From positions 1-40,674 of the IMG/VR virus record IMGVR_UViG_3300049216_000030: a DNA stretch of 40,674 nucleotides, one strand, 5' to 3'. Made by a program: the position numbers and the translations under genes. Under the pieces are notes generated by a model. That model was given only the letters and a program-made list of their open reading frames with translations, was not told the origin of the DNA and made no database searches. This document shows positions 8,363 through 40,674 of this stretch, piece by piece (the first letter of the stretch is position 1; each line of letters starts with the position of its first letter). The DNA comes from a virus.

Positions 8363-9670
8363 TTAGACCGACGCCAGGTCGGCGCGGAGTTCGGTCAGGT
8401 CGATGTGGAGGGCGTCGTAGCCGGCCTCGACGATCTCGCGGGTCAGGATGGCCCACGCCTCGTCGCAGTACTTTCCCAACCACTCCCAGGTGACGTTCAC
8501 AACAGCCCCCCAGGTGACGGCCTGCACGTAGGTGGTGTCGTAACCGACAAGCACGATGCAGTGACCGCCCAAGATCGGGGAACCGGGGACGACCGTCCAC
8601 GGCTGCCCGGCACCGAACTGCTGCTGCGCGGACTGCGGCAAGGCCACGCCGATGTACGCAGCCCCGTAGAACGCGATGGCCTGCTTGATCGCCGTGACAT
8701 CGCGTGGGTTGACCGGGGCGTACCCGGCGATCTTGTTGCCACCGAACAGGCCCTTGGTGTGCCACAGCTTGAGGACGTCGGCCTCGACGCACCCGGTGTC
8801 CTGCCCACCCGTGATGGCGTAGTACTGGTCGATCACTTCGGTGTCGGCCGGTACCGGGTCGGACATGGCGACCTGGGCGTTCGCGGCGACGATCACATGG
8901 CACGCCCCGGCGAGCGTGCAGTCCCCCACTTGGTCGTTGCCGTCCATCGCGTAGGTGGTCTTCGGGATTGACACCTTGTCCGGCACGGACGGCAGCGGGG
9001 TCTTGGCGTAGCCGACCAGATCCCTGAGACCCGGTGGGCGGTAGGCGGTGAGCTTCCCGAGCTTGAGGCTTGGCGTCCCCTTGGCGCCGGTTAGGTACAC
9101 AGGAGGTGCAAAGGTGGCGCCGGTTAGGTACACAGGAGGTGCAAAGGTCCCCATCGAGGCAGGACCGGTCGACACGGCCCGGACGGCGGACACGACCACG
9201 GGGACCGGGACCAGCTTGAGGAGTGCTTGCACGGCAGCAGTGACAGCAGCAGCGCACCCGGCAGCGACAAGCGCCACAAGGGTGGGGATGGACACGACCT
9301 TCGACGCCCCAGCCACGAGCTGGGCGCCGAACGCGGTCAGGAACACGATCACGGTCGACCAGATGACCTGCTGGACAGCCTTCGGGATCTTGAGCGGCAC
9401 CACAGCAGCCGTCACGGCCGGCGTCGGTGTCGGGATCAGCCCGAGGGCGTAATGTGCCACCGCGGTCACCCCAGCTGCCGCAGCGGCCGTGAGGAGCGCC
9501 AGCAGGGTCGGCATCGACGTGATCGCACCCGTCGCCCCTGCGACGAGCTGCCCGCCGAACGCGGTCAGGAACACCACGGTGACGTGGGTGAGTAACTGGG
9601 ACACGGCCGGGGAGATCCCCGGCCATTTGAGAGTGGTTCTCATGCTCTTCCTTTCGGGAGTGGTTCTCAT
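8363..9670 (-). CDS. Duplicated membrane segments fused to a papain-like cysteine peptidase
   Basis: 435 residues from the ATG at 9670. The N-terminus carries two related hydrophobic blocks: residues 31-78 (VVFLTAFGGQLVAGA...) and 107-155 (VIVFLTAFGAQLVAGA...), each probably one or two membrane helices, so an internal duplication. A linker with two copies of TFAPPVYLTGA follows (175-196). Residues 230-430 look like a C1-type peptidase: NDQVGDCTLAGACH offers Gln247 and Cys251, GGHCIVLVGYD offers His370, and TWG at 386-388 is in the place of the family's NSWG. Such a protein could be a membrane-tethered lysis or entry peptidase. The ATG overlaps the stop of the upstream glycosyltransferase gene (ATGA). 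A second start at 9643 is described separately. Confidence 0.72.
   Translation of the reverse strand: MRTTPERKSMRTTLKWPGISPAVSQLLTHVTVVFLTAFGGQLVAGATGAITSMPTLLALLTAAAAAGVTAVAHYALGLIPTPTPAVTAAVVPLKIPKAVQQVIWSTVIVFLTAFGAQLVAGASKVVSIPTLVALVAAGCAAAVTAAVQALLKLVPVPVVVSAVRAVSTGPASMGTFAPPVYLTGATFAPPVYLTGAKGTPSLKLGKLTAYRPPGLRDLVGYAKTPLPSVPDKVSIPKTTYAMDGNDQVGDCTLAGACHVIVAANAQVAMSDPVPADTEVIDQYYAITGGQDTGCVEADVLKLWHTKGLFGGNKIAGYAPVNPRDVTAIKQAIAFYGAAYIGVALPQSAQQQFGAGQPWTVVPGSPILGGHCIVLVGYDTTYVQAVTWGAVVNVTWEWLGKYCDEAWAILTREIVEAGYDALHIDLTELRADLASV
9083..9148 (-). repeat. Perfect 33-bp tandem duplication in the peptidase linker
   Basis: Positions 9083-9115 and 9116-9148 are identical. The unit encodes 11 residues, TFAPPVYLTGA, so the protein holds two copies in its linker between the membrane part and the peptidase domain. 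The absence of any mismatch suggests a recent slippage or unequal crossover event. Confidence 0.9.
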
Positions 9671-9685
9671 GCTCTTCCTTTCGGG
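9631..9685 (-). repeat. 27-bp tandem duplication carrying a ribosome-binding site and start codon
   Basis: A 27-base unit occurs twice in tandem. Each copy, read on the minus strand, contains AAAGGAAG, five bases, and ATG AGA ACC AC. One start is at 9670 (overlapping the upstream stop as ATGA), the other at 9643, in the same frame. The longer product begins MRTTPERKSMRTTLKW. The ribosome thus has two nearly identical start sites nine codons apart. The second copy contains no information beyond the duplicated unit. Confidence 0.9.
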
Positions 9686-37900: not shown

Positions 37901-39187
37901 TCAGCACCGACGGGCCAACCCTGCGTATTCTTTTCTGGTCATCCGGTACGACGCTGCGATAGCCGACACAGGATCGTCGTGCTTGGCATCAACGGTCAGT
38001 CCGAACCGACGGCGGGTGCCGTCACGGTCCACGCTGCCATTCGTGCACGTGACCAAGCGGACGGTGCCGTTGCGCGGGTTACCAGTGGGTGCGTTCATTC
38101 CGTCCGGAAGATCCCACAAGCGGAGCACCTGACCAGGGTTGCCCGGGTCATCACAGCAGCCGACCAGCCGCCACCCGCCTTCCTCAGCCAACCGGTCCCA
38201 GCCGTGCCGGTCCGCCATGACCCGACGGATCTCCTGGTTCGGCTCGGATAGGACCATCTCGGATGTGATCCGCTCCGGGTGCTCCACCACCACCGACGGG
38301 ACCCGGACACCGTGGATAGCCCACAGGTCGTAACCGTCGGGGTAAAGCACCGCTGGTCCGGTTTCGCAGTGAAGTCGATTGTCGGCGTCGCGCTCGATCA
38401 CCGTTGGTCGTTCCGTGAGGATCACAGCGCCTTCTAACGGCCAGCACCAACCGGAATCGGCAAGTCCGTCCATGCCGTCCAACCATCTGCTTTGCGCCTC
38501 GGTGAGCTGCACGCCGATCATGTGACCGAACTTGTACCAAGCGACCCATGGGATGTCGTGCTGGCCGTACATGGCATAGCGAAGCTGGTCCCCAAGCTGG
38601 TCCCCAAGCTGGCCCCGAAGCTGGCCCCAAAGCTGGTCCCCAAGCTGGTCCCGAAGCTGGTCCCCAAGCTGGTCCCCAAGCTGGTCCCGAAGCTGGCCCC
38701 AAAGCTGGTCCCCAAGCTGGTCCCCAAGCTGGCCCCCAAGCTGGCCCCCAAGCTGGTCCCCAAGCTGGCCCCCAAGCTGGCCCCAAAGCTGGCCCCAAAG
38801 CTGGCCCCCAAGCTGGTCCCAAAGCTGGCCCCAAAGCTGGCCCCCAAGCTGGTCCCGAAGCTGGCCCCAAAGCTGGCCCCCAAGCTGGTCCCCAAGCTGG
38901 CCCCAAAGCTGGCCCCCAAGCTGGCCCCCAAGCTGGCCCCGAAGCGTGCCGTTCTTGCCGAGCTCGGCAAGAACGGCACTGGCGAAGCACCCGCAGAGCG
39001 GGGAACCCATCCAGATGACGATTTCTGGTGGTTTGCGACCAGCGCCCTCGTACACCTTGCGGACTGCCGCCTCGATCGCAGGCCGGTCGCATGGTCCTGT
39101 TGCGAGCCCCCGGGCGAGCCATTCGTCGCGGAACTTCGGCAGGAGCGCTTGTTTTTCCGGGGTGAGTTCGGTGATGCGGGTTGTCAT
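37901..39187 (-). CDS. DUF6745-like protein with 30 tetrapeptide repeats
   Basis: 428 residues. Residues 1-82 (EKQALLPKFRDEWLARGLAT, AIEAAVRKVYEGAGRKPPEI, VIWMGSPL) and 203-428 (GVQLTEAQSRWLDGMDGLAD, VILTERPTVIERDADNRLHC followed by ETGPAVLYPDGYDLWAIHG) match a protein type I recall from actinobacteria as DUF6745, where a similar Q-L repeat may split the two halves. Residues 83-202 are thirty Q-L-x-[G/D] units in which x is only Gly, Trp or Arg. Such a repeat might form a regular beta-solenoid. The function of the family is not known. It lies in the early region beside sugar genes. Confidence 0.75.
   Translation of the reverse strand: MTTRITELTPEKQALLPKFRDEWLARGLATGPCDRPAIEAAVRKVYEGAGRKPPEIVIWMGSPLCGCFASAVLAELGKNGTLRGQLGGQLGGQLWGQLGDQLGGQLWGQLRDQLGGQLWGQLWDQLGGQLWGQLWGQLGGQLGDQLGGQLGGQLGDQLGDQLWGQLRDQLGDQLGDQLRDQLGDQLWGQLRGQLGDQLGDQLRYAMYGQHDIPWVAWYKFGHMIGVQLTEAQSRWLDGMDGLADSGWCWPLEGAVILTERPTVIERDADNRLHCETGPAVLYPDGYDLWAIHGVRVPSVVVEHPERITSEMVLSEPNQEIRRVMADRHGWDRLAEEGGWRLVGCCDDPGNPGQVLRLWDLPDGMNAPTGNPRNGTVRLVTCTNGSVDRDGTRRRFGLTVDAKHDDPVSAIAASYRMTRKEYAGLARRC
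38582..38941 (-). repeat. Thirty tandem 12-bp repeats
   Basis: The unit on the minus strand is CAGCTT followed by GGG, TGG or CGG and by GGC or GAC. Variation falls on only two bases of twelve. Thirty copies occupy 360 bases without interruption. The 12-base period keeps the frame, so copy number can change without breaking the gene, and it also keeps other frames open, which explains the long meaningless frames on both strands here. Confidence 0.93.
38946..38979. repeat. Perfect 34-bp palindrome
   Basis: GTGCCGTTCTTGCCGAG is followed at once by its exact reverse complement, with GAGCTC at the centre and no spacer. It lies four bases beyond the 12-bp array, inside the coding sequence (VLAELGKNGTL). 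As DNA it could form a cruciform; as mRNA, a very stable hairpin before the repeat. Confidence 0.93.
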
Positions 39188-39218
39188 TGGTTCTCCCGTT
39201 CGGTCGGGTGGGTGGTTT

Positions 39219-40034
39219 TCATGCGGTGCGTCGTTGGGGTGGGGCTGCGCCGAGGCCTGGTACGTCGGGGATCTTCACCCCAGGAAGGTTCTCGGTAGCC
39301 CAGTTCCGGCCGGCCATGAGCAGGTAGCGGGCTGAGCCGGGTTCGGTGTTCGTTTCGATGATCCGGCCGATCAGCTCGTCGATGATCTGGTCGGAGATCC
39401 ATTTCCGCAGGTGAGTGACGACGGTCGCGGTGCGGACGAGTTCGAGGCTGGTGCGGTTCCGTGGTCGCAGGGTGGCGTGGAAGCGGGTGGCGAGCTGGTT
39501 GCCGACGATGTCGAGTCCTGGGTCTGGTGCTTGCTTGGTCCCGTCCGGTGTTGGTTTCGGTTCCTGAGGCGTTACGCCGAAGGTCCCCTGACCTGACCTA
39601 ACCTGACCTAACCTAACCTGGGGAGAGTTTTTCGTGAGCGGTTCGTGAGTTTCTCCTGAGTCGTTCTCCGGGGGGGTGGAGAGTTCCTCCGAGCAGGTGT
39701 CCGGTGGTGGCGGAAGTGACGACAATGTTGGATGTTGCGGTTTCTGATGTTTGCTCCATTTTGGTATATAAATGTAGTCGCCACCGTTCACGTTGTACCG
39801 GCGGATCGACCCGATCGTCTCAAGTTGGTTCAACCACAACCGGACGTCGTCCTCCCTGACGTCAGGATCCCACGGGAACACCTCACCGAGGATCAACCTG
39901 GCGTTGTCAGGGAGCCGGCCTTCGTCGTCAGCGACAACCCACAACCCAGCGAAGAGCAGGCGGGCGTCACGAGACACCGTGCCCATCCTCTGTGACGAGA
40001 AGAACGTCGCTCGGAGCATCCTGGCTCTAGCCAT
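39219..40034 (-). CDS. Replication initiation-like protein
   Basis: 271 residues. The N-terminus (RARMLRATFFSSQRMGTVSR followed by DARLLFAGLWVVADDEGRLP) and RLWLNQLETIGSIRRYNVNG followed by GDYIYIPKW form the winged-helix domain found in phage replication initiators encoded beside helicase genes. A long polar linker follows (100-180). The C-terminus (FHATLRPRNRTSLELVRTAT, WISDQIIDELIGRIIETNTE, ARYLLMAGRNWATENL) resembles a DnaD-like helical domain. It should bind origin DNA and load the helicase encoded immediately upstream. The linker DNA contains the pentamer AGGTT/AGGTC repeated at 39587-39620. Confidence 0.8.
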   Translation of the reverse strand: MARARMLRATFFSSQRMGTVSRDARLLFAGLWVVADDEGRLPDNARLILGEVFPWDPDVREDDVRLWLNQLETIGSIRRYNVNGGDYIYIPKWSKHQKPQHPTLSSLPPPPDTCSEELSTPPENDSGETHEPLTKNSPQVRLGQVRSGQGTFGVTPQEPKPTPDGTKQAPDPGLDIVGNQLATRFHATLRPRNRTSLELVRTATVVTHLRKWISDQIIDELIGRIIETNTEPGSARYLLMAGRNWATENLPGVKIPDVPGLGAAPPQRRTA

Positions 40035-40674
40035 CAGTGTCCCCTCGCGTAGTAGTTCTGGAACACTCCGATGTCGGCCCGGTAGGTGAGCTTGACTGGG
40101 TTGCCGGTCGGCCCGTTCCGTTGCTTCAAGATGAGCAGCTCCGCTTCCCCGGTGTTTGGGCCTTCAGGGTTGTAGTACTCGTCACGGTAGATACCGATGA
40201 CGACGTCGGAGTCGTTTTCAATCGATCCGCTCTCGCGAATGTCGGCCAGTGTGGGCCGTTTGTCGGCCCGAAGCTCGACACCACGGTTGAGTTGGGCTAG
40301 TGCGATGACCGGGACGGCGAGGTCTCGGGCGATCCGTTTCAGCCCTGATGACATTTCGGCGACCTCGACTTGGCGGTTGTCCCGTGACCTTGTCGACGTC
40401 ATGAGTTGGAGGTAGTCGACGACGATCAGCCCGAGGCCGTGTTTGGCTGACAGGCGTCGTGCTTGGGCGCGGATGGTGGCGATCGATGCTGCTGAGTCGT
40501 CGAGGATGTACATCGGGACCGGCTCGAGTTCGCCGGCAGCGTGGGCTAGGTGACGCCAGTCTTGGTCGGGGATTTTCCCGGACCGGATTGTTGTGAGGCG
40601 GATCTGTGATGTTGCTCCGACGACGCGTTGGACGAGTTCATCGACGGACATTTCTAGGGTGACCATGAGGACTG
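40034..40674 (-). CDS. dnaB: Replicative DNA helicase DnaB, cut by the window edge
   Basis: At least 213 residues of the C-terminal RecA-like domain; the 5' end lies outside the window. VLMVTLEMSVDELVQRVVGA is the segment just after Walker A (which is off the edge). LGLIVVDYLQLM is the Walker B motif. EMSSGLKRIARDLAVPVIAL followed by AQLNRGVE, then RPTLADIRESGSIENDSDVV and YRDEYYNP, are standard DnaB motifs. The stop shares a base with the start of the initiator gene (TGATG), so helicase and loader are made together. It unwinds DNA at the phage fork. Confidence 0.93.
   Translation of the reverse strand, partial: VLMVTLEMSVDELVQRVVGATSQIRLTTIRSGKIPDQDWRHLAHAAGELEPVPMYILDDSAASIATIRAQARRLSAKHGLGLIVVDYLQLMTSTRSRDNRQVEVAEMSSGLKRIARDLAVPVIALAQLNRGVELRADKRPTLADIRESGSIENDSDVVIGIYRDEYYNPEGPNTGEAELLILKQRNGPTGNPVKLTYRADIGVFQNYYARGH

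What the first reader, a model, noticed from the sequence alone, without database searches (positions are those of the whole stretch)
38946..38979. Perfect 34-bp palindrome abutting the repeat array
A spacer-less 17+17 palindrome in coding DNA is very unlikely by chance. Its location four bases from the array suggests a link: fork stalling at a cruciform could drive expansion, or the palindrome may be a protein-binding site or the scar of a mobile element.
Basis: partly seen in the sequence, partly recalled or inferred. Interest (0 to 1): 0.65.

Follow-up and report, generated by a model that had tools for sequence, protein, structure and literature searches.

The report
Perfect palindrome beside phage repeat array
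A phage gene carries a perfect 34-base palindrome right at the edge of a block of 12-base repeats, and related phages carry different hairpins at the same kind of edge, most likely left by the copying enzyme briefly doubling back on itself there.

Summary
38946-38979 is a perfect spacerless 17+17 palindrome, the only one of its kind in the record (next best 8+8). About 1e-5 are expected by chance. Given the encoded peptide, the codon choice alone has a probability of about 1e-6. It lies in a DUF6745 phage gene on the minus strand, between the N-terminal domain and 30 copies of a 12-bp repeat.

Homologues lack this palindrome. The part of the peptide encoded by its first arm aligns without gaps to relatives, so it is not a mobile-element insertion, and it occurs only once in the record, so it is an unlikely regulator site.

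Across 198 related loci (210 array edges), near-perfect hairpins with unrelated sequences sit exactly at array edges: 7 strong stems against 0.24 expected. They are absent further into the same genes, inside the arrays and in array-less homologues. Several relatives show polarity: the domain-side arm is old coding sequence and the array-side arm is an inverted copy of it.

Best explanation: recurrent template switching (inverted copying) at array edges makes these hairpins; the window's is the longest and most perfect. A selected hairpin function is not excluded. A third batch of 76 edges reproduced the folding excess but had no very long stem.

The parts
37901..39187 (-). DUF6745 gene (428 aa) with N-terminal domain, 4-residue repeat array and C-terminal DUF6745 domain
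   Evidence: ORF; PF20530 E=8e-28 over residues 204-423
38946..38979 (.). perfect spacerless 17+17 palindrome
   Evidence: as single-stranded DNA it folds to a 15-bp stem with a 4-nt loop, -19.4 kcal/mol, z -8.3
38963..38979 (-). first arm in gene sense, GTGCCGTTCTTGCCGAG, encoding (S)AVLAE, the conserved end of the N-terminal domain; likely the older arm
   Evidence: gapless protein alignment with ASAVITEL (L016), AAAMIREL (L262), AAATVRQL (L273)
38946..38962 (-). second arm in gene sense, CTCGGCAAGAACGGCAC, encoding LGKNG(T), in the variable linker next to the array; likely the inverted copy
   Evidence: linker is 2-3 residues longer than in L016 and L262; polarity by analogy with L012/L006, L203, L218; inference for the window itself
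38582..38945 (-). array of about 30 copies of a 12-bp unit (gene sense CAGCTT[G/T/C]GGG[G/A]C), encoding QL[GWR][GD]
38940..38945 (+). CGAAGC, left copy of a 6-bp direct repeat flanking the palindrome
   Evidence: read directly; may be chance
38983..38988 (+). CGAAGC, right copy of the flanking 6-bp direct repeat
   Evidence: read directly; may be chance

Best explanation
The palindrome is the footprint of an inverted-copy (template-switch) replication event at the edge of the 12-bp repeat array. Shown: the palindrome exceeds chance and protein need; homologues lack it; hairpins of unrelated sequence recur at array edges in related phage genes and not elsewhere in those genes; in several relatives the domain-side arm is old coding sequence and the array-side arm is extra sequence, its inverted copy. 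Inferred: the polymerase, moving from the N-terminal domain into the array, stalls or slips at the array edge; the nascent 3' end switches to the complementary or its own nascent strand, copies back about 17 nt of the domain-end DNA in inverted form, then returns to the array template. The copy survives because it lands in a tolerant linker in frame. The arm polarity in the window itself is inferred by analogy. Whether slippage or a structure in the array causes the stall is not known.
For: Perfection, plus P about 1e-6 given the peptide. Edge enrichment: 7 stems scoring at least 14 at 210 edges against 0.24 expected, and 10 against 0.85 at score 11. Within-gene control without the window: upstream edges 14/124 against 3/372 with stem score at least 9 (Fisher p 7e-7) and 6/124 against 1/372 at 11 (p 0.001); downstream edges 3/152 against 0/456 at 11 (p 0.015). 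Folding excess is confined to the 40 bp touching the array: mean -2.4 kcal/mol at the upstream edge against 0 to -0.6 beyond about 30 bp. Array-less homologues show none. Polarity: in L012/L006 the arm encoding KIFAMG is shared in part with L211 and L209, and the second arm (PVTKI) is additional; L203 GAIGSA|LSQSR and L218 IAAAL|SGAAI show the same. Precedents: template switching creates perfect hairpins in one event (PMC8794818) and homogenises inverted-repeat arms in coding genes (PMC8604942).
Against: No close relative of the window phage was found, so the event is not polarised in its own lineage; the nearest N-domain is about 50% identical in protein. The linker motif L-x-K-N also occurs in L005, so the second arm may be partly native. 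The first arm carries the rare codons GTT and CTT, which could mean that it is the copy. Only a few percent of edges carry a strong hairpin. A third batch of 76 new edges had no stem of 11 or more (3 of score at least 9 against 0.68 expected), though its DUF6745 upstream edges kept the folding excess, mean -2.1. Batch 2 was fetched as relatives of hairpin-bearing loci, so it is not a random sample. A spacerless palindrome needs an inter-strand switch or later loss of a loop. Other tandem repeats in the same loci show a weaker edge excess (3 against 0.77 at score 11).
Confidence: 0.6

Rival explanations
1. The hairpins are selected: a structure, not a sequence, is needed at array borders, for example as a cruciform or mRNA hairpin that controls array diversification, replication pausing or translation between the two domains.
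For: Structure recurs while sequence does not; stems are often perfect; positions are exact at either edge; L012/L006 keep an edge hairpin across about 19% DNA divergence. A sequence-independent hairpin stem is required next to the variable repeat of diversity-generating retroelements (PMC3240598).
Against: Most edges (over 90%) have no strong stem, and the L012/L006 stem already carries mismatches in a protein-conserved stretch. No reverse transcriptase in 12 records. No Rfam match.
Confidence: 0.2
2. Protein-binding site (operator or replication-initiator site), given the neighbouring replication-initiator gene.
For: The next gene upstream is a replication initiator (PHROG 2149), and iteron-like repeats sit alongside.
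Against: Single copy in the record; not conserved in relatives; hairpins in relatives have unrelated sequences, and the array units vary to suit protein residues.
Confidence: 0.06
3. Scar or end of a mobile element or MITE, with CGAAGC as a target-site duplication.
For: CGAAGC occurs directly on the left and 3 bp to the right of the palindrome.
Against: The first-arm peptide aligns gaplessly with homologues, and the linker differs by only 2-3 residues, so a 34-bp insertion is excluded. No similar sequence elsewhere in the record or as an exact match in the viral collection.
Confidence: 0.04
4. Misassembly or chance.
For: The record is a virus contig of unknown assembly quality; repeat arrays are hard to assemble; read data were not available.
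Against: The reading frame continues through; the arms (17 bp) are shorter than usual assembly k-mers; chance expectation is 9e-6; hairpins at array edges recur in independent contigs, and L012 and L006 carry the same one.
Confidence: 0.05

Closest known systems
Template-switch mutations that create or perfect inverted repeats (PMC8794818; PMC8604942; E. coli quasipalindrome hotspots, PMC7202029)
   Same: Perfect inverted repeat from one event, in coding DNA, with one arm an inverted copy of the other
   Different: Here the events recur at a defined place, the edge of a coding 12-bp tandem array, with unrelated sequences in many phages; I found no paper describing this
Hairpin/cruciform beside the variable repeat of diversity-generating retroelements (PMC3240598)
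   Same: Hairpin abuts a diversifying coding stretch of a phage gene; stem structure matters rather than sequence
   Different: No reverse transcriptase or template repeat found; stems up to 17 bp with no GRNA tetraloop; present at only a minority of arrays, and on both sides
DUF6745 (PF20530) proteins
   Same: The host gene is a clear member
   Different: Phage members carry 4-residue repeat arrays between the two domains; function unknown, and no paper in the library names the family

Membership tests
Template-switch-derived inverted repeat | Arms perfectly or nearly perfectly reverse complementary beyond chance and coding need | tested here: met
Template-switch-derived inverted repeat | One arm ancestral, the other an inverted copy absent from close relatives | tested here: inconclusive
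   Met in L012/L006 and consistent in L203 and L218; the window has no close enough relative
Template-switch-derived inverted repeat | Direct observation of the event (mutation accumulation or reads) | not testable with these tools
   No reads or culture
Diversity-generating retroelement target | Reverse transcriptase gene | tested here: not met
   PF00078 absent from 12 records, though these may be fragments
Diversity-generating retroelement target | 7-10 bp stem with 4-nt GRNA loop 4-34 bp downstream of the variable repeat | tested here: not met
   17+0, upstream side, loop AGCT if extruded
Mobile element or MITE | Insertion relative to homologues | tested here: not met
   First-arm peptide aligned gaplessly; linker differs by 2-3 residues
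Intrinsic terminator | Stem followed by a T run in a transcribed intergenic region | tested here: not met
   Inside a gene; gene sense continues GCTTCGGGGCC with no T run
DUF6745 (PF20530) | Match above the gathering score | tested here: met
   97.5 bits against a cut-off of 27

The most novel reading that the evidence does not exclude
Array-edge hairpins are a recurrent, sequence-independent cis element of a so far undescribed array-diversifying process in phage DUF6745 genes: the hairpin halts the polymerase and helps to grow or reshuffle the 12-bp units, in the manner of the retroelement cruciform but without a reverse transcriptase.
Probability: 0.12. Interest if true: 0.8.

Novelty: new variant of a known kind. 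Interest (0 to 1): 0.48.

Why it matters
Template switching is known, but its natural hotspots in phage coding DNA are hardly mapped. Here the edge of a coding minisatellite looks like a repeated site of inverted copying, which would give new linker peptides and perfect hairpins in single steps. It offers a system to test how tandem arrays provoke strand switching. If the hairpins prove functional instead, they would mark a new way to diversify a phage protein.

Tried and rejected
The exact 32-bp core was searched in the viral collection: no match. A search for close relatives through the replication initiator found none; DNA similarity in phages reached only M. abscessus prophiGD102-1, mostly through the array. 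A mobile insertion was rejected by the protein alignment. A regulator site was judged unlikely because it is single-copy. The DGR idea was rejected for lack of a reverse transcriptase and of the right hairpin geometry. Terminator and known RNA families were rejected. I first thought the window's first arm had been rewritten from the second because of its rare codons; the polarised relatives favour the opposite direction, and I leave it open. The strong-stem result did not repeat in the third batch, so I lowered confidence. A generic effect at all tandem repeats was checked and is weaker.

Full report
What is there. The record is an IMG/VR virus contig of 40,674 bp with siphovirus-like head, tail, terminase, replication-initiator and DnaB genes. 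On the minus strand a 428-aa gene (37901-39187) has a C-terminal DUF6745 domain (PF20530, E 8e-28), a middle array of about 30 four-residue units QL[GWR][GD] encoded by a 12-bp repeat (38582-38945), and an N-terminal domain. Between N-domain and array lies GTGCCGTTCTTGCCGAG|CTCGGCAAGAACGGCAC (38946-38979), a perfect 17+17 palindrome without spacer.

Beyond chance and beyond the protein. The next best spacerless palindrome in the record is 8+8, and composition predicts 9e-6 palindromes of this size. Given the peptide and the record's codon usage, P of the palindromic codon set is 9.7e-7. In 3,000 synonymous recodings no arm reached 17. It is single-copy.

Homologues. Relatives encode the end of the N-domain as ASAVITEL (L016, M. 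abscessus prophage), AAAMIREL (L262), AAATVRQL (L273) or AAAINQL (L005), aligning without gaps to the window's ASAVLAEL; the linker that follows varies in length and sequence. At the matching position their complementarity is 5-7 of 17, close to chance. So the palindrome arose in the window's lineage, is not needed for the protein, and is not an inserted element.

The link to the array. Among 89 homologues, the region around the N-domain end showed a few other long hairpins, notably L115 with 15-bp arms. I then fetched more loci and tested array edges. With perfect stems, 6 with arms of at least 14 sit at edges against 0.07 expected from the rest of the loci; inside arrays there are none with arms of at least 10. 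Allowing up to 2 mismatches in 198 unique loci (210 edges): 7 against 0.24 at score 14, 10 against 0.85 at 11, 19 against 2.6 at 9. The sequences are unrelated: WIN 17+0, L151 (the same contig as L115) 15+3, L156 15+0, L203 15+3 upstream; L010 14+2, L160 14+5, L128 14 downstream; L012 and L006 share a near-perfect 17-bp stem ending at the array. Excluding the window and using windows in the same genes as control: upstream 14/124 against 3/372 at score 9 (p 7e-7), downstream 3/152 against 0/456 at score 11 (p 0.015). The composition-corrected folding excess is confined to the 40 bp touching the array on each side and is absent at the domain junction of 52 array-less homologues.

Replication and limits. 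Loci came in batches. The idea was formed on batch 1; batch 2 (relatives of two hairpin-bearing loci, hence biased) added L156, L203, L160, L157 and L218. Batch 3, fetched by array DNA pattern, gave 76 new edges with no stem of 11 or more and three of at least 9 (0.68 expected); its DUF6745 upstream edges had a mean folding excess of -2.1 kcal/mol with 13% below -6, like the earlier sets. Pooled, the excess is strong, but the share of edges with very long stems is a few percent and uneven among clades. Paired tests on mean folding energy are modest (p 0.011 upstream, 0.11 downstream): a minority of edges carries the signal. Other tandem repeats in the same loci show a smaller excess.

Polarity. 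In L012/L006 the domain-side arm AAAATTTTTGCGATGGGC encodes KIFAMG; L211 and L209 share ALKIF and L207 has ALQIF, going almost directly on to the array, while L012/L006 add DQPVTKISL, whose DNA is largely the inverted copy. L203 keeps the conserved GAIGSA codons and then carries LSQSR as inverted copy; L218 keeps IAAAL and then SGAAI. L151 and L154 are 79% identical in DNA up to 4 bp before the L151 hairpin and then part. This is what is expected if a polymerase entering the array from the N-domain turns back, copies the last bases in inverted form, and resumes in the array.

Mechanism. Template switching makes reverse-complement copies and can create a perfect stem in one event (PMC8794818); between inverted repeats in yeast genes it changes several residues at once (PMC8604942). 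The place, the edge of a coding tandem array, is what is new here. The trigger (stalling, slippage, or structure in the array) is inferred. For the window itself the direction is not settled: L-x-K-N also occurs in L005, and the rare codons lie in the domain-side arm.

Rivals. A selected structure cannot be excluded; the hairpin next to the variable repeat of diversity-generating retroelements is a precedent for sequence-independent need (PMC3240598), but no reverse transcriptase was found in 12 records, the loop and position differ, and most arrays lack a hairpin. Operator, mobile-element, terminator and assembly explanations are each contradicted or unsupported as listed.

Verdict. Observation confirmed; link to the array supported; most likely a footprint of inverted template switching at an array edge and the longest and most perfect of a recurrent set.

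Noticed in passing
37901-39187 and homologues such as L102, L118, L123, L132, L097: Phage DUF6745 genes carry 12-bp arrays of many residue types (QL[GWR][DG], QV, DSV/ASV, DAV/GAV, SQV, SSL) at the same place between the domains; most chromosomal homologues of Nonomuraea and Streptomyces lack them. Same period, different chemistry, probably a convergent 4-residue repeat fold.
   Followed up: partly
38184-39122 (-), 38492-39298 (+), 38518-38979 (-), 38548-39018 (+): The array is open in several frames on both strands, giving spurious ORFs of 153-312 aa.
   Followed up: no
39219-40672: The DUF6745 gene is next to a replication initiator and DnaB; in M. abscessus prophiGD102-1 (L016) a RepA-like initiator also lies just upstream.
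   Followed up: no
L005 2958-2988: A second perfect hairpin (13+5), 85 bp upstream of the array, inside conserved N-domain codons of the same gene that has a 10+4 hairpin near the array edge.
   Followed up: no
L298 768-790 and 1135-1156; L012 5209-5247 and 5438-5462: Arrays with hairpins at both edges.
   Followed up: partly
9605-9624 and 9631-9685: A 9+2 perfect inverted repeat lies 6 bp from a perfect 27-bp tandem duplication elsewhere in the window.
   Followed up: no
39587-39620: Short array of CCTAACCTGA-type units (gene-sense AGGTTAGG) inside the replication initiator gene, possibly iterons.
   Followed up: no
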